This document shows positions 47,483 through 61,989 of a stretch of DNA of 64,000 nt, one piece after another. The stretch's first letter is position 1. Every line of letters begins with the position of its first letter. Source of the DNA: Limnohabitans sp. Rim28 (GTDB lineage: Bacteria; Pseudomonadota; Gammaproteobacteria; Burkholderiales; Burkholderiaceae_C); contig NZ_ALKN02000001.1 of the NCBI RefSeq assembly GCF_000293865.2, forward strand, positions 434,001-498,000, given 5' to 3'. The position numbers and the translations under genes were made by a program. The notes beneath the pieces are model-generated. The model was not told where the DNA came from. It did not search any database and was given only the letters and a program-made list of their open reading frames with translations.

Positions 47483-48076
47483 ATGTCAGCCACCCCGAAA
47501 ACCACCGACCTGTGCGACGCCCGCGAGGACGTGCAGGCCTGTGCCGTGCTGTTCCAAAGTTACGGTTTGCGCCGCGCCTTTACCGGACCGATGCGCACCT
47601 TGCGATGCTTTGAAGACATTGGTCTGATGCGCGACACCGTGAGCCAACCCGGACACGGTCAAGTGCTGGTGATCGACGGCGGAGGCTCCATCTCGCGCGC
47701 CTTGTTTGGCGACGTGATGGCCGAGCTCGCCTCACGCAACGGTTGGGCGGGCTTGGTCATCCACGGTGTGGTGCGCGATGCCAACGAGCTGAACGCCATC
47801 GCCATCGGTGTGAAAGCCCTGGGCACGGTGCCCAAGCGAGGCAGCCGCACGGGTGCAGGTGAGCGCGATGTGCCCTTGCATTTCGGTGGCGTGACTTTCA
47901 CTGTGGGCGACCACCTGGTGGCCGATGCGGATGGCGTGGTCGTGTTGCCGACCGGCTTGACGGCCGCAGACATCGAGGTTGCTGACGTGGTGGCCGCCAC
48001 GGCCGCTTACGCAGCGGGGACACCCGCACCCACACCAGCTTCTGTCAACAAATCGCCACCGACATCGCCGGCATGA
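47483..48076 (+). CDS. rraA: RraA-like protein / probable 4-hydroxy-4-methyl-2-oxoglutarate-type aldolase
   Basis: A 197-residue RraA-fold protein: TTDLCDAREDVQACAVLF, VIDGGGSISRALFGDVMAE, NGWAGLVIHGVVRDANEL, IGVKALGTVPKR and FGGVTFTVGDHLVADADGV. The Asp in VRDANEL corresponds to the metal-binding Asp of the HMG/CHA aldolases. E. coli RraA, a pure RNase E regulator, has a Gln there. The sequence is therefore compatible with a working class II pyruvate aldolase. Its position between binding proteins and dehydratase genes also argues for a catabolic aldolase rather than RNA regulation. It overlaps leuC by 4 bp. Confidence 0.85.
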   Translation: MSATPKTTDLCDAREDVQACAVLFQSYGLRRAFTGPMRTLRCFEDIGLMRDTVSQPGHGQVLVIDGGGSISRALFGDVMAELASRNGWAGLVIHGVVRDANELNAIAIGVKALGTVPKRGSRTGAGERDVPLHFGGVTFTVGDHLVADADGVVVLPTGLTAADIEVADVVAATAAYAAGTPAPTPASVNKSPPTSPA

Positions 48077-49497
48077 CAGGACGCACCCTGTACCAGCGCA
48101 TCGTCGATGCGCACACGGTGCGGCCACTGGGTGACACTGGGCAAATCCTGCTTTATGTCGACAGGCAGGTGCTCAACGAATACACCAGCCCACAAGCTTT
48201 TGCAGCACTGCATGCGCAAGGTCGCCCGGTGTGGCGGCCCGGCTGCACCCTGGCTGTGGTCGACCACGTCAACGCCACAACGCCTGTGCGTAACGCACGC
48301 ACCATGGTCTTGCACGATGCCGACCGCGCCCGGCAAGTGCACACCTTGGCCGACAACTGTGCACGCCACGGCATGGAGTTGTTTGACATGCTGGACACGC
48401 GCCAAGGCATCGAGCATGTGGTGGCCAGCGAACAAGGCTGGGTTTTGCCCGGCATGGTCATGGCCGCAGGCGACAGCCACACCACCACCCACGGGGCCAT
48501 GGGGGCTTTGGGCTTTGGCATTGGCAGCAGCGAGATCGAACACCTGCTGGCCACCCAGACTTTGGTGTACCGACCCCAGAAAAACCTGCGCGTCACGGTG
48601 CACGGCACGATGCCGTCGGGCATCTCGGCCAAGGACGTGGTGCTGAGCCTGATCGCGCAGATCGGCGCCGATGGTGCTGCGGGCCACGTCATCGAGTACA
48701 CCGGTGAAGCAATCCGGGCCATGGGTGTGGAGGGCCGGTTGACGCTGTGCAACATGAGCGTGGAGGCCGCAGCGCGTGGGGCCATCGTGGCACCAGACGA
48801 CACCCTTTTTGACTACCTGCACGGCCGCCCGCGTGTGCCACAAGATGCCCTGTGGGATGCCGCCGTGGCGCAATGGCGAAATCTCAAGAGCGACGATGCG
48901 GCCGTGTTTGACCGCGAAGTCAGCTTGGACGCCCGCCTCATCGCGCCGCGCGTGACCTGGGGCACCAGCCCGGACCAAGGCGTGCCCATTGACGGAGTGG
49001 TGCCTGACCCGGCCAATGAAAGCGATGCGCAAAAGCGCCAAGGCATGCAGCGCGCTTTGGCCTACATGGATTTGAAACCTGGCCAAGCACTGCAGGGTTT
49101 GCCCATCAGCCATGCCTTCATTGGCTCGTGCACCAACAGCCGCATCGACGATTTGCGCGATGCCGCTCGCTATGTGAAAGGCCGCCGCGTGGCACCCGGC
49201 GTGCGCGCCATGGTGGTGCCGGGCTCATCCCAGGTGCGTGCCCAGGCCGAGGCCGAGGGCCTGGCCCATATCTTTCAAGAAGCCGGTTTTGAATGGCGAC
49301 AGTCGGGCTGCTCGATGTGCGTGGCCATGAACGAAGACCACCTGAACCCGGGCGACCGATGTGCCTCCAGCACCAACCGCAATTTTGAAGGCCGGCAAGG
49401 CGCGGGGGCACGCACCCATTTGATGAGCCCCGCGATGGTGGCCGCCGCCGCCGTGAACGGTGTGCTGAGCGACTTGCGCACCCTGCCTTGCCACTGA
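48073..49497 (+). CDS. leuC: 3-isopropylmalate dehydratase-family large subunit (LeuC-like)
   Basis: A 474-residue aconitase-family protein with the three [4Fe-4S] ligands in IGSCTNSRIDDL and SGCSMCVAMNEDHL, and the active-site segments AGDSHTTTHGA and FGIGSSEIEH. By length and motif it belongs to the bacterial LeuC group, but the operon has no leuB or leuA and instead has rraA, ocd and an FAD oxidase. It may therefore act on another 2-hydroxy di- or tricarboxylate, as dimethylmalate and citramalate dehydratases do. It overlaps rraA by 4 bp and precedes its small subunit by 10 bp. Confidence 0.88.
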   Translation: MTGRTLYQRIVDAHTVRPLGDTGQILLYVDRQVLNEYTSPQAFAALHAQGRPVWRPGCTLAVVDHVNATTPVRNARTMVLHDADRARQVHTLADNCARHGMELFDMLDTRQGIEHVVASEQGWVLPGMVMAAGDSHTTTHGAMGALGFGIGSSEIEHLLATQTLVYRPQKNLRVTVHGTMPSGISAKDVVLSLIAQIGADGAAGHVIEYTGEAIRAMGVEGRLTLCNMSVEAAARGAIVAPDDTLFDYLHGRPRVPQDALWDAAVAQWRNLKSDDAAVFDREVSLDARLIAPRVTWGTSPDQGVPIDGVVPDPANESDAQKRQGMQRALAYMDLKPGQALQGLPISHAFIGSCTNSRIDDLRDAARYVKGRRVAPGVRAMVVPGSSQVRAQAEAEGLAHIFQEAGFEWRQSGCSMCVAMNEDHLNPGDRCASSTNRNFEGRQGAGARTHLMSPAMVAAAAVNGVLSDLRTLPCH

Positions 49498-49507
49498 AGC
49501 ACCACGC

Positions 49508-50173
49508 ATGACTTCTCACCTGCCTGCCTCCAGCGCCCTGAGCCCCCTCACCACACTGTCTGGTCCTGCGGCCGCCCTCAGCTTGCCGCATGTCGACACC
49601 GACCAAATCATGCCCAAGCAATTTCTCAAGGGCATTGACCGGAAAGGTCTGTCCCAGGGTTTTTTGCACGACATGCGTTTCAACGCAGCGGGCCAAATAC
49701 GCGCCGAATTTGTGCTGAACCAAACACCTTGGACGGAGGCCCAATTTTTGATCACCGGGCCCAATTTTGGCTGCGGCTCCAGCCGCGAACATGCGGTATG
49801 GGGCATGCAACAGTTGGGCATTCGCTGCGTGATCGGGGCCAGCTTTGGCGGCATTTTCAGCGACAACTGCCTGCGCAACGGTGTGCTGGCCCTGGTCCTG
49901 CCCGAAGCCGATGTGGCGCGTTTGATGCGCCTGGCCCAAGACCCCCTGCTTTGCCACATGCAACTGGACTTGCCGACACAATGCTTGTACACCTCAGGGG
50001 ACGGACAGCGTTTGCGTTTTGAACTCGACCCTCTGCACAAAGAGATGCTCTTGCATGGCTTGGACGCCGTGGGCATGAGCCTGACCCATGCCCAAGACAT
50101 CCGAGAATTTGAAACTCGGTACCACGCGGCTTACCCATGGGCTGCGCCACGGCAAAATCACACCACCCGCTGA
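49508..50173 (+). CDS. leuD: 3-isopropylmalate dehydratase-family small subunit (LeuD-like)
   Basis: A 221-residue swivelling-domain subunit. The family sequences LPHVDTDQIMPKQFLKGI, GPNFGCGSSREHAVWGMQQ and IGASFGGIFSDNCLRNGVL are clear. It forms the active site with the large subunit encoded just upstream. The pair could be the leucine enzyme or a specialised paralogue; the context favours the latter. It is followed 22 bp later by an ornithine cyclodeaminase-family gene. Confidence 0.9.
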   Translation: MTSHLPASSALSPLTTLSGPAAALSLPHVDTDQIMPKQFLKGIDRKGLSQGFLHDMRFNAAGQIRAEFVLNQTPWTEAQFLITGPNFGCGSSREHAVWGMQQLGIRCVIGASFGGIFSDNCLRNGVLALVLPEADVARLMRLAQDPLLCHMQLDLPTQCLYTSGDGQRLRFELDPLHKEMLLHGLDAVGMSLTHAQDIREFETRYHAAYPWAAPRQNHTTR

Positions 50174-54889: not shown

Positions 54890-55225
54890 ATGAAAACCGC
54901 CCCCAACGCCCTGCCCGAGGGGCTCGACGCTGCCGACACCTCACAGATCGTGGCCATGGCTTGGGACGACAGCACCTCGTTTGAAGCGATTGCGCTGAAC
55001 TATGGTTTGGGCGAAGCGCAAGTGATCGCCCTGATGCGGCAAAACCTGAAAGCGCGTTCGTTCCAAGTGTGGCGCCAACGGGTGCGCGGCAGAAGCAGCA
55101 AACACGCTGTCAAGCAAGCACAACAAACTGCGCGCACGCAAACAGCACCATCACCGGCCTTGGCAGACAACACCGACGAATTTCCGCTGCGTGAGAGCCC
55201 TGCAACGCGGCTCAGTCTCAAATAA
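54890..55225 (+). CDS. TIGR03643/DUF2805 family protein
   Basis: A 111-residue small protein. Residues 16-70 match the TIGR03643 family: DTSQIVAMAWDDSTSFEAIA, YGLGEAQVIALMRQNLK and SFQVWRQRVRGRSSKH, a helix-turn-helix-like segment with basic residues that might bind nucleic acid. The C-terminal 40 residues are Gln/Thr/Pro-rich and look unstructured. The function is unknown. It lies 24 bp after the pseudoprotease gene. Confidence 0.8.
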   Translation: MKTAPNALPEGLDAADTSQIVAMAWDDSTSFEAIALNYGLGEAQVIALMRQNLKARSFQVWRQRVRGRSSKHAVKQAQQTARTQTAPSPALADNTDEFPLRESPATRLSLK

Positions 55226-55237
55226 AATCAAGTCTGC

Positions 55238-55255
55238 TGTACACCTTGATTTACA
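55238..55255. promoter_or_regulatory. PpsR/CrtJ-type operator site 1 (TGT-N12-ACA)
   Basis: TGT (55238-55240), 12 bases, ACA (55253-55255). The dyad extends to TGTA-N10-TACA. This is the published recognition pattern of the PpsR/CrtJ photosynthesis repressors. It lies about 90 bp upstream of an AerR/PpaA-like gene and 18 bp from a second near-perfect site, the tandem arrangement such repressors use. Binding is inferred. Confidence 0.55.
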
Positions 55256-55273
55256 GGTGATAACCCCTAGAAA

Positions 55274-55291
55274 TGTCAGGTCATTTTGACT
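55274..55291. promoter_or_regulatory. PpsR/CrtJ-type operator site 2 (near match)
   Basis: TGTCA-N8-TGACT matches TGT-N12-ACA at every specified base except the last, and its inner dyad TGTCA/TGAC is strong. The right half overlaps TTGACT (55286-55291), a good -35-like hexamer, so an occupied site would block the promoter of the downstream regulator gene. Confidence 0.5.
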
Positions 55292-55343
55292 TGCACAGGG
55301 GGATTGAAACCGTTAAGGTCAAAACTTACTTTTGGACACCTTG

Positions 55344-56264
55344 ATGTACCTCAATCTACCGGGCCTTTCTTTCAACCCGTTGAAGGCACATGCAAGCGCC
55401 TTGCTGACCCTCATGTCGTCCCTTGGACAAAGTTTGACTCCTCGCGCCATGCAACAGCACAACGCAGACTCATCCCATGGTCAAGACGAATGCAAACGTT
55501 CTTTGACCGAAGTCATCGAGACGCAAATCATCCCGCGCCTGGTGCAGGCGCACCGGGTCGCCCTGCCCGATGCCAACGCACCCTCCACAGGCCCGGGCAT
55601 ATCGCCCAAACAACTGGCCACCTTTGTCGCATTGAGCAAATCGAGCTCCGCCAGCGAGACCACCCAATTCATCGACGAACTGCTGCACCAGGGCGTGACC
55701 ACCGACCGGATTTTTCTGGAACTGATTGCCCCCGCCGCCCGTCAACTGGGTTGGATGTGGGAGCAAGACCTGTGCGATTTCACCGAGGTCACCTGCGGCT
55801 TGGTGCGCATGCACGAGATCACGCACCGCTTGGGTTTTGAATACCAAAACGGCCCGCAACTGGGTGGCGATGTGCAGCGCATCATGCTGGCCTCGGCTCC
55901 GGGCTCACAGCATTTTCTGGGCATGACCATCGTGTCCGATTTTTTCCGCAAAGCGGGCTGGGACGTGGTCATCGAGATCTCGCTGAGCGAAAAAGAACTG
56001 GTGCACGCGGTCAACAACGAGTGGTTTGATGTGATCGGCATTTCTTGCGCCACCGAGGCGCAGCTCAAAACCCTGCCCGGCCTGATCCGTGCGCTCAAGG
56101 CGTCTTCTGGCAACCCCGAACCGGGTGTCTTGCTGGGTGGCCCCATCTTCACGGTGCAACAGCACGATGCCCGCAGCCTGGGCGCGGATGGCATTTGCAT
56201 CGATGTGAAAGAGGCCGTGGCGCTGGCCGCGTCCTTCCGCTCAAGCCCTTCGGCGAGCGCCTGA
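55344..56264 (+). CDS. AerR/PpaA-like cobalamin-binding-domain regulator
   Basis: A 306-residue protein from ATG 55344; in-frame TTG 55332 and ATG 55413 are alternatives. Residues 125-165 form the helical cap (LGWMWEQDLCDFTEVTCGLVR) and 176-300 a B12-binding Rossmann domain with ASAPGSQHFLGMTIVSDFFR, where His190 takes the place of the cobalamin-ligand His of DXHXXG. The cap sequence W..D...F..VT.G..R and the motif PG.QH.LG...V.DFFR are those of AerR/PpaA, light-sensing antirepressors of the photosynthesis repressor PpsR/CrtJ. Its own promoter region holds tandem PpsR-type sites. No photosynthesis genes are in the window. Confidence 0.8.
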   Translation: MYLNLPGLSFNPLKAHASALLTLMSSLGQSLTPRAMQQHNADSSHGQDECKRSLTEVIETQIIPRLVQAHRVALPDANAPSTGPGISPKQLATFVALSKSSSASETTQFIDELLHQGVTTDRIFLELIAPAARQLGWMWEQDLCDFTEVTCGLVRMHEITHRLGFEYQNGPQLGGDVQRIMLASAPGSQHFLGMTIVSDFFRKAGWDVVIEISLSEKELVHAVNNEWFDVIGISCATEAQLKTLPGLIRALKASSGNPEPGVLLGGPIFTVQQHDARSLGADGICIDVKEAVALAASFRSSPSASA

Positions 56265-57470
56265 CACCGGACTTTGGTGCGCCGCAGGCGCTTGCGCACC
56301 TTGTTGAATTTCGGCGGCAGCCGCTTCTGCCACTCCGGTGCTCATGGCACCGTCATGCTGGGCTGCTTGTTCAAAGGCCGAGGCCTTTGGCAACATGGCT
56401 TGCAACACCGATTGCACATGGCGCAAACGCGGGTCGTCGTGTTGCGCATCGTCGGTGGTGTCGTTGATGCAAAAGAAATCCAAGGCACCAAATTCAGCCG
56501 CCAAGGCCTGCAACTGGGCTTCTTGGTCGGCATCGCCTGTGGACACATGGCCATGCCGGTAAGTGCGCAGCCGGGCCAAGCCATGGGCCAGCGCCCAGCG
56601 CAGCACAAAGTCCGAGACGATGGTGGGTTTGTCCCAACTGCGAAACACCGTGGAGCGCACACCCGCAAACAATTCAGGCGCAACGTCTTCCAGCTCACGC
56701 AAGATGGACCGGCGCATCGGCCTGGGCGAATGGGCAAAGGTGCGGAAGGTGCTTTGGTACAGCGGGTCTTGCGTGCGGTTGAGGGGATCGGCGACCTGTC
56801 CGGCCAAAGCCAACCGGGCCTGCGCCGTGAGCCATTCGATCGACAAACGGCAAGCGTTTTCAAGCGAGGTGGCGTCCGTGCGCATGGCCTCGTCCGTGAC
56901 CTCGGGCTCGTCTGACCAGGTCACATAAAACCCATCGGCGGTGAACCAATCGTTGGGGTTCAGGGGCGCGCCCAAAAACACATCGTCATTGAAATAAAAG
57001 TAGCGCTCCGACAAACCCGGGATGTGGTGAATCCACGACTCGATGTGGCCCGAATCGAAGGTGGGCAGTGAGGCCTCGGGCATCAGCTCACGGTGGTCCA
57101 CCAGTGTCAAACGGTCCGAGGGGCGCAGCCAATCAGGCGCTTGGGCATCGGTGACGATGTAAACATGGCCGTGCTGGGGGAAAAACTTCTCCAGGGCGCG
57201 CAAGCTGTAGCGCAGCTCGTGGTTGTCACGATAACGCCCTTCCACGTTGCTGTAACGCGCCATGGCCGCACCCGTGTCTTGGGGCAATTGCGCCAAAGCC
57301 GCTTCGCGCTTGGCCCGCCAAATGGCGTCATTGCCATCCACCCACAGGTACACCACGTCGATGGGCGCATCAGCGCTGTGGGCTGGCGGATGTGCAGCGG
57401 TCTTGGGAGTCAGAGGCAAAACAAAGGAAGCAGAATTTTTTTGAGCCCTGAGTCTACCAGTGGGGTCCAT
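56241..57470 (-). CDS. Stealth family sugar-phosphate transferase (capsule/exopolysaccharide type)
   Basis: A 409-residue protein of the Stealth family, whose members transfer hexose-1-phosphates to make phosphodiester-linked capsules. Conserved region 1 is IDVVYLWVDGND (about residues 37-48). Region 2 spans YRDNHELRYSLRALEKFFP, VYIVTDAQAPDWL, HIESWIHHIPGLSERYFYF and NDDVFLG. Later parts contain STFRTFAHSPRPM and SDFVLRWALAHG. The C-terminal 60 residues are Ala/Gln-rich. It starts 7 bp after the umuC stop, which suggests co-transcription, and its 3' end overlaps the AerR-like gene by 24 bp. No other capsule genes are nearby. Confidence 0.85.
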   Translation of the reverse strand: MDPTGRLRAQKNSASFVLPLTPKTAAHPPAHSADAPIDVVYLWVDGNDAIWRAKREAALAQLPQDTGAAMARYSNVEGRYRDNHELRYSLRALEKFFPQHGHVYIVTDAQAPDWLRPSDRLTLVDHRELMPEASLPTFDSGHIESWIHHIPGLSERYFYFNDDVFLGAPLNPNDWFTADGFYVTWSDEPEVTDEAMRTDATSLENACRLSIEWLTAQARLALAGQVADPLNRTQDPLYQSTFRTFAHSPRPMRRSILRELEDVAPELFAGVRSTVFRSWDKPTIVSDFVLRWALAHGLARLRTYRHGHVSTGDADQEAQLQALAAEFGALDFFCINDTTDDAQHDDPRLRHVQSVLQAMLPKASAFEQAAQHDGAMSTGVAEAAAAEIQQGAQAPAAHQSPVSGARRRA

Positions 57471-57477
57471 CGGCTTT

Positions 57478-58851
57478 TCAATACCCGCCGGGGGCTGAGG
57501 GCCACTGATCGACCGCTCGCACTGCGTCGTTTTGCACCGTCAACAAGCCCCGCCAGTCGGTCGTGTAGGCCGGGGTTTTGAAGTCTTGCTTCATGTGCCA
57601 AATTTGCGCCGCCTGCCCTGTGCCCGCGCTGCCCAGCTTCAGGCTGCCCCGGCCGTGGCGCTGGTTGATCAGGTCGATGGCCTGCATCAAGCGTGTGCGG
57701 TTGGCAGGCTGGGCATCACCTGCGTGGCGCGACAAATCGAGCGTCATCTGTTGGCGCGTGGCCGGTTGCAAACCCATCAGCATCACGCCCGCCTTGGCAT
57801 ACAAAAACCCCGGCTGGTAAATGCTGCCCAGCAAAGCCACTGCCGCCTGCGTGATGTGCGCGCTGTCGCTGGTGGGCACGGGCAGCGGCAGGCAAGCGCT
57901 GCGGCTGTACTGCGCGTCTTGCTTTTTGAACGGGCTGGTGCGGATGTAGACCATCACCTGCGCCGCATGGCCCTTTTGCTTGCGCAGTTTTTCAGCAGCG
58001 CGGCAGGCGAATTCGGTCACGGCCTGCTGCAAATCGGCCAGCTCGGTCACCGAGCGGCCAAAGCTGCGGGTGCAGGCAATCTGTTGCTTGGCTGGGGGCT
58101 CGTCTTCAAATTCGATGCAAGGCGTGCCACCCAGTTCGCGCACGGTTTTTTCGAGCACGACCGACCAGCCGGCTTTGGCGGCGGCCGGGTCCATGCGTTG
58201 CAGGTCGAGCGCGGTGTGGATGCCTTGGGCGCGCAGTTGTGCGCCGATGCGGGGGCCCACGCCCCACACCTCGCCCACTTCGGTGGCTTGGAGCAGGGCT
58301 TGGAGTTCTTGCGCGTTGCACGCCCCCAGGTGGCAGATCTGCGCGTGGTGAGCCGGGTAGCTGCCGGGCTTGCGCTCGGCGCTTTTGGCGATGGCATTGG
58401 CCAGTTTTGCAAGCGTCTTGGTGGGGCCGATGCCGATGCAGGTCGGAATGCCGATCCATTGGTGAATGCGCCTGCGGATGGTGCGGGCGCGGCGCACCAA
58501 GTCGCCGGGGATGCCGCTCAGGTCCACAAAGCTTTCATCGATGGAATAGACCTCTTGCGTGTGGCCCAGGCCTGCGGCCAGGCTCATCATGCGGTCGCTC
58601 ATGTCGCCGTACAGTGCAAAGTTGGCCGACAGGGCGATCAGTCCGGCGTCGCGCTCGAGCTCGCGCAGCTGAAAGTACGGCGCGCCCATCTTGATGCCCA
58701 GGGCTTTGGCTTCGTCACTGCGGGCGATGGCGCAGCCGTCGTTGTTGGACAGCACGACCACCGGCCGGCCTTGCAGCCAGGGCTGGAAGACGCGTTCGCA
58801 AGACACGTAAAAGTTGTTGCCGTCGATGAGGGCGAGCATGGGGAGGGGCAT
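57478..58851 (-). CDS. umuC: DNA polymerase V catalytic subunit UmuC (Y-family)
   Basis: A translesion polymerase of 457 residues from ATG 58851; ATG 58839 is an alternative. The Y-family catalytic acids are in [20 protein letters not shown] and [12 protein letters not shown]. Other family parts are [48 protein letters not shown] and the little-finger domain, followed by the UmuC C-terminal extension ([12 protein letters not shown]). A perfect LexA box ends 7 bp before the start, so expression is SOS-controlled. Unlike most bacteria, umuD is not adjacent but about 2.7 kb away. Confidence 0.94.
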
Positions 58852-58858
58852 GGCCAAA

Positions 58859-58878
58859 TACTGTACAAATGCACAGTA
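58859..58878. promoter_or_regulatory. LexA (SOS) box of umuC
   Basis: TACTGT-N8-ACAGTA: all 12 outer bases match the E. coli-type LexA consensus. It lies 7 bp upstream of the umuC ATG, leaving almost no untranslated leader, and 143 bp upstream of the divergent SOUL gene. Confidence 0.93.
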
Positions 58879-59021
58879 TACGGAGGTCAAAGAAGCCAGG
58901 GGCCAAGGGGGTGGTGCTCGCGATGTGCCCCCCAGATCGCGCAAGCGTGCGCCAGCGGACCGCTGGCCTGCCACCCATTTGCTTTAATGTCTGACCAGAC
59001 CCCTTTTGCAAGCGAGCTTTT

Positions 59022-59594
59022 ATGCCTTGGTTTTTTTCTGTTTTGTTTCTTTTTTGTGGAGCCGCCATGGCCGTTGAAGAACCGCGTTACACCGTGCTGG
59101 TCTCTGAGCCCCCTTTTGAGGTGCGCCGCTACGCGGCCTTCACCGTGGCGCAAACCCAAATCAGTGGCGACTTTGACGCCGCAAGTCGCAACGGCTTTCG
59201 GCGCATTGCGTCTTATATTTTTGGTGACAACGTCCAGGCCGAGGTGGGCGCTCAGCGCAAGATCTCGATGACGGCGCCCGTCACCGTCGCCCCCGATTCC
59301 GAAGGCTGGCGGGTGCACTTTGTGATGCCGTCTGCCGAGAGCCTGCAGACCCTGCCCAAGCCCCTGAACCCCCAGGTTCAGCTGCGCACCGTGGTCGAGC
59401 ATGAGGTGGCGTCGGTGCGTTTTAACGGTTTCACGACGCAGGCCAGCGTTGCAGAGCAAACCGAGCGGCTGAAGGCTTGGGCCAAAACCAAAAATCTCAA
59501 GCTCAACCCCACGGCCCAAGTGGCCCGCTACGACGATCCGTTCACCTTGCCGTGGAACCGGCGCAACGAAATCTTGATCGATCTGCTGCCCTGA
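59022..59594 (+). CDS. SOUL heme-binding family protein
   Basis: A 190-residue protein of the SOUL/HBP family. It has a short hydrophobic signal peptide (about 1-17, FFSVLFLFCGAAMA), after which YTVLVSEPPFEVRRYAAFTVAQT gives the usual start of the mature domain. RRIASYIFGDN, KISMTAPVTV and RYDDPFTLPWNRRNEILIDL are family landmarks. Members bind heme or porphyrins weakly; the physiological role in bacteria is unknown. It is divergent from umuC. Confidence 0.9.
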   Translation: MPWFFSVLFLFCGAAMAVEEPRYTVLVSEPPFEVRRYAAFTVAQTQISGDFDAASRNGFRRIASYIFGDNVQAEVGAQRKISMTAPVTVAPDSEGWRVHFVMPSAESLQTLPKPLNPQVQLRTVVEHEVASVRFNGFTTQASVAEQTERLKAWAKTKNLKLNPTAQVARYDDPFTLPWNRRNEILIDLLP

Positions 59595-59689
59595 TGTCCT
59601 GAAAGGCGCTGGGCTCAATCGCCCGGTGCGGCCTGCGCCGAGGGTGGTCTGTTGTAGCCTTGGGCGATGGTCAACACAGTCTTGCAGCC

Positions 59690-60046
59690 GTGACAGGGCG
59701 CATCCGCAAAAAACTGATTCAAGCCCAGCTTGAAGCCCTGCCCGCACCGCGCGCTGACGACGTGCTGTGCCCACTGTGCAACCGCGCCATTCCGCCCAGC
59801 CAACAAGATGCGCACCACCTGGTGCCCAAGTCGCACGGCGGTGCGCACACCGTGGTGCTGCACCGCATTTGCCACCGCCAGATCCATGCGCTGTTCACCG
59901 AGACCGAATTGGCCCGCACCTACGCCACGGTCGAAGCCTTGAAGCAGCCCGAAGAGATGGCCCGCTTTATCCAGTGGGTGCAAACCAAACCGGACGCATT
60001 TTTTGAAAAAAGCCGCAAGAGTCAGCGGCTCAAAAGCAGGCGCTGA
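59690..60046 (+). CDS. small HNH endonuclease-domain protein
   Basis: A 118-residue protein from GTG 59690; an in-frame TTG at 59660 would give 128 residues and there is no in-frame ATG. It has an HNH zinc-finger fold: CPLCNRAI (CXXC), DAHHLVPKSHGG with the HH pair, and VVLHRICHRQIHALF. The C-terminus is basic (KSRKSQRLKSRR). Similar small HNH proteins are widespread in Proteobacteria with unknown targets. It stands alone between the SOUL gene and the convergent PNPOx-like gene, close to a set of SOS repair genes. Confidence 0.8.
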   Translation: MTGRIRKKLIQAQLEALPAPRADDVLCPLCNRAIPPSQQDAHHLVPKSHGGAHTVVLHRICHRQIHALFTETELARTYATVEALKQPEEMARFIQWVQTKPDAFFEKSRKSQRLKSRR

Positions 60047-60052
60047 AAGCAT

Positions 60053-60628
60053 TCAGGGCGTGAGCCACTCCCAGGTGTTGGCACTCAGCTGCGCCCGGCG
60101 GTGCCCGGCGCGCGACAACTCCAACCAGTCCATCTGAAGCACTTGCGCACGCAGCAAGGCAAAACTGTGCGCGGGCCTAGGGGCATCGGTCGTTTCTGCG
60201 CTGGCGGTCGTACTGTCTTGCGCCAACACAGCACCCGGCGGCCGTGGCGACACATAATCACCCGCAGCCGCCGACTGCTTGACCCCTTGCCAAAGCGCCT
60301 CGACCTCTGGGCCAGAGGTGATGGCCGTGCAGGCCACACGCACCCGCAATTGCCAACTCAAACGCGCACTCCAAAACACCAGCATCGCTGCACCTTGAGC
60401 CTGCAGCTGCGCCACTTTGGGGCTGCGGCTGTCGGTGTAAAAAGTCAGTTGCCCGGCCACTGCGTCCACCTGCCGCAGCACCACGGTGCGGGCATCGGGC
60501 AAGCCGCCTGCGTCGGTAGAAGCCAGCACCGGCGTGCGCCATTCGTGGTGCCGATCCAGACTTGCCCGGCCCAGCTCCTTCCAGATTTGCGGGCGTATGT
60601 CCTCAGGCGTTTGCAGGTGGATTTTCAT
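60053..60628 (-). CDS. pyridoxamine 5'-phosphate oxidase-related FMN-binding protein
   Basis: A 191-residue flavin-binding split-barrel protein of the Pyridox_oxase_2/Alr4036 type. From ATG 60628 it shows WKELGRASLDRHHEWRTPVLAS, DARTVVLRQVD, LTFYTDSRSPKVAQL and AMLVFWSARLSWQLRV, and the end MDWLELSRAGHRRAQ resembles the PNPOx C-terminus. It may oxidise pyridoxamine phosphate or bind another flavin substrate. It follows cho by 32 bp and may be part of the umuD-cho transcript. Confidence 0.85.
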   Translation of the reverse strand: MKIHLQTPEDIRPQIWKELGRASLDRHHEWRTPVLASTDAGGLPDARTVVLRQVDAVAGQLTFYTDSRSPKVAQLQAQGAAMLVFWSARLSWQLRVRVACTAITSGPEVEALWQGVKQSAAAGDYVSPRPPGAVLAQDSTTASAETTDAPRPAHSFALLRAQVLQMDWLELSRAGHRRAQLSANTWEWLTP

Positions 60629-60660
60629 GATGATGGGCTTGGGGTGCGTTGGGTGAGGGC

Positions 60661-61536
60661 TCACAACAACACAATGTCCACACTTTGCGTGAGCACCGGG
60701 CGGCACAAAATTTTGTAGCCGTCGGCGTCAAAGTGGGCAGCCACTTGGCTGGCCGACTGGCTCAGTTGGCGGGCGGCCTCGGGGGTGGGGGCGCTGCCCA
60801 AATAGCACCAGTGCTTCACGACGTGGATTTGCGTGAGTTCGGCATCGCGCTCGACCAATCCCACCGCGCCCGGGTAAGGCCAGCATTCCACGCGCAGCGC
60901 CAGCAGGCTGCTGAACAAGCGCTCGCGGTGCACCTCAGGCGTTTCGTCACCCCGGCACACACCCGCGCACTGGCGGATGGCAGCCCTGAAGCAGGCTTTG
61001 CCAGGGGGCCCTTTTTCCAGGCCCAGCGGCCCGTAGCAAAGTTTGTGTTGGTCGGCCACGGCCCGCAGCGCATTCAGCGCCGCATGGCGGCTGGCGTACA
61101 GGCCATACAGCTCGGGCTGGCTGGCAAAGTCGATGTCGCGGGCATACACGACTTGCGGCACTTCGCCCGTCAGTTGCAAGCTGCACAATTGTTGGTTGCG
61201 GCGCAGTTTTTGGTTGAACAAGGGGTGCTGCGCCTTGATCATTTGGGCTTCCAGCAGCAGCGCGCCAATCTCGCCCGCCGTGCGGATGTGGCTGATGCGT
61301 TGGGTTTGGCGCAGCATGCGGGCCTCGTCGGGCGTGCGCAGGTGCGACAACAATCGGGCACGGATGTTGATGCTTTTGCCGATGTAAAGCGGCAAGTCAC
61401 CTTCTTGGCCGTGGAAGATGTAAACACCCGCCCCGGTGGGCGCGTCTTCAATGGCTTCGCGCAGGTGCTGGGGGTATTCGTAGACGCGCTCGGCCTCAAA
61501 GTCGTCGCGGCGGTGGCGTGGGGAGATGGTGGCCAT
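60661..61536 (-). CDS. cho: excinuclease Cho (UvrC-like endonuclease)
   Basis: A 291-residue homologue of the N-terminal half of UvrC that makes the 3' incision during nucleotide excision repair at bulky lesions. The GIY-YIG domain is clear: GAGVYIFHG, PLYIGKSINIRARLLSH, and the catalytic Glu in TAGEIGALLLEAQMIK. The C-terminal part has ADQHKLCYGPLGLE, RQCAGVC and DADGYKILC, as in E. coli Cho (about 295 residues). Cho is SOS-induced in E. coli. Here it lies 21 bp behind umuD, itself under a LexA box, so the two form an SOS operon. Confidence 0.92.
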   Translation of the reverse strand: MATISPRHRRDDFEAERVYEYPQHLREAIEDAPTGAGVYIFHGQEGDLPLYIGKSINIRARLLSHLRTPDEARMLRQTQRISHIRTAGEIGALLLEAQMIKAQHPLFNQKLRRNQQLCSLQLTGEVPQVVYARDIDFASQPELYGLYASRHAALNALRAVADQHKLCYGPLGLEKGPPGKACFRAAIRQCAGVCRGDETPEVHRERLFSSLLALRVECWPYPGAVGLVERDAELTQIHVVKHWCYLGSAPTPEAARQLSQSASQVAAHFDADGYKILCRPVLTQSVDIVLL

Positions 61537-61557
61537 GTCAAAGGTGTTGGAGGCGAG

Positions 61558-61989
61558 TCAGGTTTGGTGCTGGTGAATGGTCGCGACCACCACGCCCCAG
61601 ACGTCCACGCTTTGGCCGTCTTTGGGCACGATATCCGGGTAATCGGGGTGGGCCGCTTGCAATCGGATGCCCTCCCCTTGCAAACGCAGGATTTTGCAGG
61701 TGAAGTCGCCGTCGATCACCGCCAACACAATTTGCCCATCGGCCGGGGTGATGGCGCGGTCCACCAACACCACCGAACCGTCCAGGATGCCCGCGTCGCG
61801 CATGCTTTCCCCGCGCACGCGGATGTAAAACGTGGCCTGCGGGTGCTTGACCAGCTGCTGCATCAGGTCGATGCGCTCGACCTGGTGGTCTTCGGCGGGC
61901 GAGGGAAAGCCTGCCGCAATGCTGGCGGGCAAGGCCTGCAGCCACCAGTTTCCGGGGGGCAGGGCTTGGGGGGTGTCAGGGGCGTGCAT
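61558..61989 (-). CDS. umuD: UmuD-type DNA polymerase V subunit / LexA-family autoprotease
   Basis: A 143-residue S24 peptidase-fold protein. The self-cleavage site is Ala-Gly in IAAGFPSPAEDHQ (E. coli UmuD has Cys-Gly). The catalytic dyad is Ser in VRGESMRDAGI and Lys in DFTCKILRL. After RecA-stimulated cleavage UmuD' joins UmuC to form Pol V. There is no DNA-binding domain, which rules out LexA itself. A perfect LexA box lies 41-61 bp upstream. It is separated from umuC by cho, a PNPOx-like gene, an HNH gene and the SOUL gene. Confidence 0.94.
   Translation of the reverse strand: MHAPDTPQALPPGNWWLQALPASIAAGFPSPAEDHQVERIDLMQQLVKHPQATFYIRVRGESMRDAGILDGSVVLVDRAITPADGQIVLAVIDGDFTCKILRLQGEGIRLQAAHPDYPDIVPKDGQSVDVWGVVVATIHQHQT

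What the first reader, a model, noticed from the sequence alone, without database searches (positions are those of the whole stretch)
55238..56264. AerR/PpaA-like B12-domain regulator with its own tandem PpsR/CrtJ operator pair
The protein has the AerR/PpaA cap and PG-X-QH-X-LG motif. Its upstream region holds TGT-N12-ACA (55238-55255) and a second near-perfect site (55274-55291) overlapping a -35-like TTGACT. PpsR/CrtJ and AerR/PpaA form a repressor/antirepressor pair for photosynthesis genes, so this looks like a feedback loop placed away from any visible photosynthesis cluster. It also suggests the organism is an aerobic anoxygenic phototroph or a recent descendant of one.
Basis: partly seen in the sequence, partly recalled or inferred. 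Interest (0 to 1): 0.7.

Follow-up and report, generated by a model that had tools for sequence, protein, structure and literature searches.

The report
Second B12 photosynthesis regulator outside cluster
A freshwater Limnohabitans-type bacterium that can harvest light carries, far from its photosynthesis gene cluster, a second vitamin-B12-domain protein of the AerR/PpaA type with one credible binding site for the cluster's own repressor in its promoter, so the light-control circuit appears to reach outside the cluster.

Summary
The window gene (ATG 55344-56264, 306 aa) is an AerR/PpaA-type B12-domain protein: its best solved-structure match is R. capsulatus AerR, and the cobalt-ligand His and Trp/Phe cap are kept. 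The organism is a Limnohabitans relative with a photosynthesis gene cluster (PGC) on another contig, including one PpsR and a second, shorter AerR paralogue beside it, so the phototroph inference holds. Of the 'tandem operator pair', site 1 (55238-55255) holds up: with a PpsR matrix trained on PGC operators it is the best of 63,983 window positions, and none of 100 simulated sequences reaches it; it recurs in 8 of 23 orthologous promoters. Site 2 fails. The conserved promoter differs from the one proposed: TTGC at 55291, TANNGT at 55314, plus an invariant upstream block of unknown function. Relatives carry either this gene outside the PGC (type A, 16 of 60 genus genomes) or a ~50% identical homologue, usually inside it (type B, 25 of 60); one MAG has both. 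All 16 type-A genomes have PpsR. Best reading: a second AerR-like PpsR co-regulator, under PpsR feedback in this species. Binding and function are inferred, not shown.

The parts
55344..56264 (+). AerR/PpaA-type B12-domain protein (306 aa), called AerR2 type A here
   Evidence: PF02310 66.2 bits over cut-off 32.1; AerR 7te2 best in PDB by profile; H190, W139, F146, G266 aligned to AerR H145, W94, F101, G220; ATG in 24 of 24 sequences compared
55238..55255 (.). PpsR/CrtJ-type operator TGTACACCTTGATTTACA (site 1)
   Evidence: PWM score 20.1, rank 1 of 63,983; not reached in 100 simulations; score >=15 at -106 to -108 from the ATG in 8 of 23 type-A promoters
   Evidence: PWM score 5.9, rank 9 in the window; not conserved
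55257..55270 (+). conserved promoter block GTGATAACCCCTAG, probable activator site, factor unknown
   Evidence: 10 of its 14 columns invariant in 21 promoters; one exact match of GGTGATWACCCCTA in the genome
55291..55296 (+). -35 element TTGCAC
   Evidence: TTGC invariant in 21 of 21 promoters, fixed spacing
55314..55319 (+). -10 element TAAGGT
   Evidence: TA..GT invariant in 21 of 21, 17-bp spacer
54890..55225 (+). upstream neighbour, DUF2805 / TIGR03643 protein; not part of the circuit
   Evidence: upstream neighbours differ between orthologues
56241..57470 (-). convergent downstream neighbour, Stealth-type protein; not part of the circuit
   Evidence: Stealth CR1, CR2, CR4 over their Pfam cut-offs, CR3 just below

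Best explanation
The window gene is a second AerR/PpaA-type co-regulator (AerR2) of the photosynthesis repressor PpsR in a phototrophic Limnohabitans relative, encoded outside the photosynthesis gene cluster. The protein has an N-terminal extension, a helical cap and a cobalamin Rossmann domain; it most likely binds cobalamin through His190 and reports its light or redox state to the PGC-encoded PpsR through the cap, changing how PpsR binds photosynthesis promoters. Its own promoter is a sigma-70-type promoter with an invariant activator-like block; in this species and some relatives PpsR has an operator just upstream of that block, closing a feedback loop. Shown here: sequence family, fold prediction, ligand residues, presence of PGC, PpsR and a second paralogue, co-occurrence with PpsR, promoter conservation, statistical quality of one operator. 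Inferred: cobalamin binding, PpsR contact, direction of regulation.
For: AerR 7te2 is the best PDB match of the family profile (1.5e-18) and first in Foldseek (3.4e-11). AerR H145, W94, F101 and G220 are kept in 109 of 109 aligned rows and T105 in 104 of 109. Own genome: one PpsR over the curated cut-off (414.9 against 275.4 bits), pufM, bchC, bchY, bchZ, bchH, bchB, bchN, bchG, bchP, acsF, and a short AerR-type gene beside ppsR. In 60 genus genomes a PpsR match (E up to 1e-50) is present in 16 of 16 type-A genomes, 23 of 25 type-B, 6 of 20 with neither (Fisher p 2e-7 for A or B). Of 47 type-B loci 39 hold a core PGC gene within the DNA fetched. Operator statistics for site 1; another match of the same motif outside the PGC lies 19 bases from hemA. 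Literature: PpsR/CrtJ found at the ppaA promoter in Rhodobacter (passage in PMC5362033).
Against: 15 of 23 type-A promoters lack the operator, so PpsR control is not a fixed property of the gene. CrtJ/PpsR usually uses two sites (8-9 bp apart, or far apart; PMC9144470, PMC4452267 passages); only one is credible here. The site lies upstream of the predicted promoter, not over -35/-10 as in bchC (PMC5362033 passage), so repression by occlusion is not obvious. Two of three residues proposed to touch CrtJ differ (S109 is V154, Q112 is H157). The gene is not next to ppsR. Type A is missing from G010, whose PpsR is 97% identical (75% complete), and G060 has pufM and a PpsR but no AerR2 (90% complete). 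The PWM is trained on operators inferred from position, and TGT/ACA was required in training. The fold alone does not separate AerR from photocobilins or CarH.
Confidence: 0.7

Rival explanations
1. The protein is AerR-derived and B12-binding, but no longer works on PpsR or photosynthesis: it now regulates something else, for example a stress or B12-responsive gene.
For: Location away from the PGC next to unrelated genes (0 of 24 type-A loci hold a core PGC gene); operator absent in 15 of 23 promoters; two proposed CrtJ-contact positions changed.
Against: 16 of 16 type-A genomes have PpsR, and the 14 of 60 genomes without type A, type B and PpsR include three of 99-100% completeness. Types A and B exclude each other in 39 of 40 carriers, as expected if they do the same job.
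Confidence: 0.17
2. Site 1 is a chance look-alike: the promoter is driven only by the unknown factor at GTGATAACCCCTAG and the sigma-70 promoter, and PpsR does not bind there. (This can be true together with the best explanation of the protein.)
For: The block is invariant in 21 promoters while site 1 is kept in 8 of 23; the second site fails; the bare core motif is at chance frequency.
Against: Score rank 1 of 63,983 and not reached in 100 simulations; in L083, L085, L087 the half-sites are kept while the spacer differs; the Rhodoferax antarcticus homologue also has a site (19.4).
Confidence: 0.27
3. A B12-dependent light-sensing regulator of the CarH/LitR or photocobilin kind, unrelated to PpsR.
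For: Photocobilins and CarH score as high or nearly as high in structure comparison (Z 21.3 and 19.0, AerR 19.3).
Against: Only PF02310 is found, no MerR helix-turn-helix; the sequence profile gives AerR 70 bits against 40 for photocobilins; tied to phototrophs.
Confidence: 0.06

Closest known systems
AerR of Rhodobacter capsulatus (LAerR/SAerR)
   Same: B12 domain with helical cap, lower-ligand His, Trp/Phe cap; the long form has an N-terminal extension; works on CrtJ = PpsR (passages of eLife PMC6199135 and Microorganisms PMC9144470)
   Different: One gene next to crtJ gives two isoforms there; here there are two separate genes, a short one beside ppsR and this long one outside the PGC. No conserved equivalent of LAerR His10 was found.
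PpaA and AppA of Rhodobacter (Cereibacter) sphaeroides
   Same: Two related proteins acting on one PpsR; PpsR found at the ppaA promoter (passage of PMC5362033)
   Different: AppA uses flavin and a heme-binding SCHIC domain (passages of PMC6199135, PMC10734443); the Limnohabitans second copy is a plain B12-domain protein with the cobalt-ligand His kept.
HP1 (Rru_A0625) of Rhodospirillum rubrum
   Same: PpaA/AerR-type protein with effects beyond photosynthesis (PMC10734443, abstract and passages)
   Different: HP1 lacks the cobalamin motif and lies beside ppsR.
CarH/LitR
   Same: B12 photoreceptor fold
   Different: CarH has a MerR-type DNA-binding domain (recalled; linked DNA-binding domain in PMC9144470 passage); none found here.

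Membership tests
AerR/PpaA co-regulators of PpsR/CrtJ | Cobalamin-binding Rossmann domain with a helical cap | tested here: met
   PF02310 66.2 bits; predicted helices 88-165 then Rossmann 179-297; AerR first in Foldseek
AerR/PpaA co-regulators of PpsR/CrtJ | Lower cobalt ligand His (AerR His145) and W94/F101 cap | tested here: met
   H190, W139, F146
AerR/PpaA co-regulators of PpsR/CrtJ | Sequence closer to AerR than to other B12 families of known structure | tested here: met
   7te2 70 bits against 40 for photocobilins and 31 for B12 mutase
AerR/PpaA co-regulators of PpsR/CrtJ | A PpsR/CrtJ partner in the genome | tested here: met
   own genome 414.9 bits; 16 of 16 type-A genomes
AerR/PpaA co-regulators of PpsR/CrtJ | Binds cobalamin and PpsR, changes PpsR activity | not testable with these tools
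   needs biochemistry
AerR/PpaA co-regulators of PpsR/CrtJ | Upper-ligand His in the N-terminal extension (LAerR only; not shared by SAerR) | tested here: inconclusive
   H16 is present in many but not all type-A proteins (absent in L074, L081, L083, L139)
AerR/PpaA co-regulators of PpsR/CrtJ | Common but not defining: gene next to ppsR | tested here: not met
   ppsR is on contig C3, this gene on C1
CarH/LitR | N-terminal MerR helix-turn-helix | tested here: not met
   only PF02310 found in the protein at E up to 0.001
Corrinoid methyltransferase proteins (MtbC, MtgC) | Curated family cut-off | tested here: not met
   22.3 bits against 350 and 20.7 against 370
Photocobilins | Bilin-binding site beside B12 | not tested
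   fold similar; bilin pocket not examined
Tandem PpsR/CrtJ operator | Two TGT-N12-ACA palindromes, typically 8-9 bp apart | tested here: not met
   one credible site only; the second scores 5.9 and the gap between the two is 18 bp (coordinates)

The most novel reading that the evidence does not exclude
Phototrophic Comamonadaceae of this group split the job that R. capsulatus does with two AerR isoforms between two genes: a short PpaA next to ppsR and a long AerR2. In one Limnohabitans group AerR2 became a chromosomal, host-owned gene that stays in place while PGCs with quite different PpsR proteins (90-97% or 72% identical to this genome's) are exchanged around it, and it replaces the PGC-borne version. 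Light/B12 control of photosynthesis would then be partly owned by the host and not by the mobile cluster.
Probability: 0.25. Interest if true: 0.65.

Novelty: new variant of a known kind. Interest (0 to 1): 0.42.

Why it matters
In the papers whose passages I read, AerR-type light control is described as one gene beside ppsR/crtJ. Here a second, long AerR-type protein sits outside the cluster in one lineage and usually inside it in relatives, nearly always one or the other. That gives a natural test of what the long and short forms each do, of whether one AerR2 can serve PpsR proteins that differ by 28%, and of how a horizontally moving photosynthesis cluster is wired into a host. Limnohabitans is prominent in freshwater plankton (abstract of PMC3591437 in the listing), and some type-A records are named strains and not MAGs.

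Tried and rejected
Riboswitch or other known RNA in the upstream region: no Rfam match up to E 1 in 54900-56400.

RpoH-type promoter: CCCCTA with CTTGAT upstream looks RpoH-like in this species, but the -35-like part is not conserved. Consensus recalled; rejected.

LAerR His10 equivalent: H16 looked promising in the first ten sequences (9 of 10) but is absent in L074, L081, L083, L139. Rejected as a family feature.

Simple recent transposition of the PGC gene: type A is its own clade (100/100) and is not nested with the type-B copies of genomes that share nearly the same PGC. An old split with differential loss, or transfer, fits better; not decided. An AU test meant to hold A, B and seven single-copy genes together was not finished.

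leuC as a host marker: it proved to be an accessory second copy, so I used mutL.

Other copies of the promoter block as a regulon: none at exact level; 26 two-mismatch hits against 12 for the reversed control pattern, not followed further.

C23:998 as a PpsR target: the site (17.4) lies inside or at the start of a priA-like ORF, so it may be chance.

Rows dropped: L132 and L134 second hits (branch length 7.8); L034, L037, L137 only; L069 (156 bases upstream) and L088 (no start) from the operator count of 23; L069, L084, L129 of the 24 promoters were not in the 21.

Full report
What is there. The ORF runs from ATG 55344 to the stop at 56264 (306 aa). A possible earlier TTG (55332) is not kept in all orthologues, while an ATG stands at the 55344 position in 24 of 24 type-A sequences, this genome included. 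Pfam finds only the B12-binding domain (66.2 bits); NCBIfam finds only mutase and corrinoid-protein matches below their cut-offs. A profile of 22 relatives hits R. capsulatus AerR (7te2) first in the PDB, E 1.5e-18, then photocobilins at 2.6e-9. The AlphaFold model (mean pLDDT 73; residues 1-45 below 50) has a helical cap and a Rossmann domain; Foldseek ranks AerR first, while in the second aligner photocobilins (Z 21.3), AerR (19.3) and CarH (19.0) are close, so the fold alone does not decide. The AerR residues around cobalamin named in PMC9144470 (passages) map to H190, W139, F146, R133 and G266; H, W, F and G are invariant in 109 aligned rows. E155 is F200 and T189 is S234. Of three residues proposed there to touch CrtJ, T105 is kept (T150) while S109 and Q112 are V154 and H157.

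The organism. The window is contig C1:434001-498000 of a 3.4-Mb genome. Named relatives are Limnohabitans. Contig C3 carries pufM and a PufL-like gene, bchC, bchY, bchZ, crtD, a crtI-type gene, acsF, bchH, bchB, bchN, bchG, bchP, a 267-aa AerR-type protein and, beside it, the only PpsR that the family search found (414.9 bits against a cut-off of 275.4). The window protein and the PGC paralogue are 29% identical.

The operators. The bare core TGT-N12-ACA is at chance level in the window (11 against 14.7 expected). I built a symmetric matrix from 6 PGC operators of this genome and all 49 TGT-N12-ACA matches (27 distinct) within 500 bases upstream of the ppaA match in 25 relatives; the window site was not in training. 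This genome's own operators, which were in training, score 15.5-20.2. Site 1 (55238-55255) scores 20.1 and is first of 63,983 positions; the next is 12.1. Among perfect TGT-N12-ACA sites in 100 first-order Markov simulations of 64 kb the highest score was 17.3; a random 12-base spacer does as well as site 1 with frequency 0.0002 in 20,000 draws. Site 2 scores 5.9 (rank 9). A site scoring 15 or more stands at -106 to -108 from the ATG in 8 of 23 type-A promoters: this genome and three close relatives, and L083, L084, L085, L087, where the half-sites are kept while the spacer differs. It is absent in 15 of 23. Among 46 type-B genes only Rhodoferax antarcticus (L119) reaches 15 (19.4) within 400 bases upstream of the matched stretch. 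A genome-wide search with a pattern made wide enough to include site 1 gave 14 places (19 strand hits, against 5 for the reversed control). The best outside the C3 region are site 1 (20.1), C23:998 (17.4, inside or at the start of a priA-like ORF) and C8:118065 (16.1, 19 bases from hemA). Caveats: TGT and ACA were required in training, and the training operators are inferred from position.

The promoter. In 21 aligned promoters the invariant columns include ten of the fourteen of GTGATAACCCCTAG (55257-55270), CTTGC (55290-55294) and TA..GT (55314-55319), at fixed spacing. TTGCAC, 17 bp, TAAGGT fits a sigma-70 promoter; a start near 55326 would place the block near -62, a usual activator position (inference). 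Upstream genes differ between orthologues, so the block belongs to this gene. GGTGATWACCCCTA occurs once exactly in the genome. Its factor is unknown. One base separates site 1 from this block, so PpsR there would sit beside the activator and not over the promoter.

Relatives. Among the 80 loci from named genomes, 0 of 24 type-A loci (76% identity or more) match any of 18 core PGC-region proteins at 1e-20 within the DNA held. Of 47 type-B loci (41-55%) 39 do; L112 also has a bchP fragment at its edge. The other seven (L100, L126, L127, L132, L133, L134, L136) show none, so a few type-B genes may also lie outside. The usual type-B order is bchN, short ppaA, ppsR, bchG, bchP, tspO, type B; in Rhodoferax antarcticus it stands beside a prenyl-synthase gene and bchC-bchY-bchZ-puf. 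In all nine more distant loci (L137, L138, L140-L146) a ppsR homologue is within the locus, and the single AerR-type gene is directly before it. In the tree of 106 rows type A is one clade (100/100), A+B one clade (100/99.7) and the short PGC paralogues another (94/98).

Co-occurrence. In the same 60 genus genomes: type A 16, type B 25 (G032 only a 110-residue fragment), both 1 (G070, 560 contigs), neither 20. PpsR (E up to 1e-50; in some genomes only 40% identical): 16 of 16, 23 of 25, 6 of 20. pufM: 14 of 16, 24 of 25, 4 of 20; the two type-A genomes without pufM (G064, G065) are 70-74% complete and have PpsR. Fisher tests: p 2e-7 for PpsR, 2e-8 for pufM, 1.4e-6 for mutual exclusion among 46 genomes with PpsR or pufM; related genomes are not independent, so these p-values are too small. 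G007, G023, G027 and G029 have type A at 86-89% but PpsR at 72%, while type-B genomes G011, G073 and G083 have PpsR at 92-93%; MutL is 87-90% and 87-91% in these two sets. So AerR2 type does not follow PGC type. I read this as PGC exchange around a resident gene, on identities alone. Against a fixed link: G010 (PpsR 97%, 75% complete) shows no AerR2, and G060 and the complete G001 have pufM without type A or B. Across the order, 43 of 399 genomes have an AerR-type match at 1e-20 and 5 have two; at most six candidates a genome were scored, so two-copy genomes may be undercounted.

Mechanism. Most likely the protein is a cobalamin-dependent co-regulator of the PGC's PpsR, working like AerR. It has the N-terminal IIPRL..AHR stretch also seen in some single-copy homologues (L140, and in part L142), which the short paralogue lacks. 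R. capsulatus makes long and short AerR isoforms from one gene with opposite effects, and the authors suggested that R. sphaeroides may have replaced one isoform by a duplicated gene (PMC6199135, passages). Two genes in Limnohabitans could be the same split; this is a hypothesis. PpsR at an aerR-type promoter is known in Rhodobacter (PMC5362033 passage), so the loop itself would not be new; its placement outside the PGC is what differs.

Novelty. Five full-text searches, judged from their listings and from passages of seven papers, showed no paper on an AerR/PpaA gene outside the PGC in Limnohabitans. Kasalicky et al. 2018 on Limnohabitans phototrophy is not held, nor is Vermeulen and Bauer 2015, so part of this may be in print. 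I file it as a new variant of a known kind.

Noticed in passing
L143 (Solirubrobacterales) and L134 (Chitinophagaceae) may also be mislabelled or mis-binned.
   Followed up: partly
window 55257-55270: Near-invariant promoter block GTGATAACCCCTAG with no known factor; one exact match of GGTGATWACCCCTA in the genome.
   Followed up: partly
L020-L031, about 60-200 nt upstream of type-B genes: Type-B genes have a different conserved promoter (CTAGGGTTT, CTTGTTG, TATAAA) and a long conserved untranslated leader.
   Followed up: no
G000:C8:118065 (L190): PpsR-type site (score 16.1) 19 bases from hemA, outside the PGC.
   Followed up: partly
G018:C9:404688-406083: ppsR of this type-A genome is split over two frames, a possible frameshift or sequencing error.
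   Followed up: no
window 48073-50173: leuC/leuD-like genes here (names recalled) look like an accessory second set; a relative of the leuC-like protein (52% identical) is at C9:31525.
   Followed up: partly
L087 and L092 (KT_bin-2687, probably G070): The only assembly seen with both type A and type B; fragmented MAG, may be a mixture.
   Followed up: no
window 57478-61989: A umuC-family polymerase gene (PF00817) and an S24 peptidase gene (PF00717, umuD-like) flank a SOUL heme-protein gene and a pyridoxamine-oxidase-like gene.
   Followed up: no
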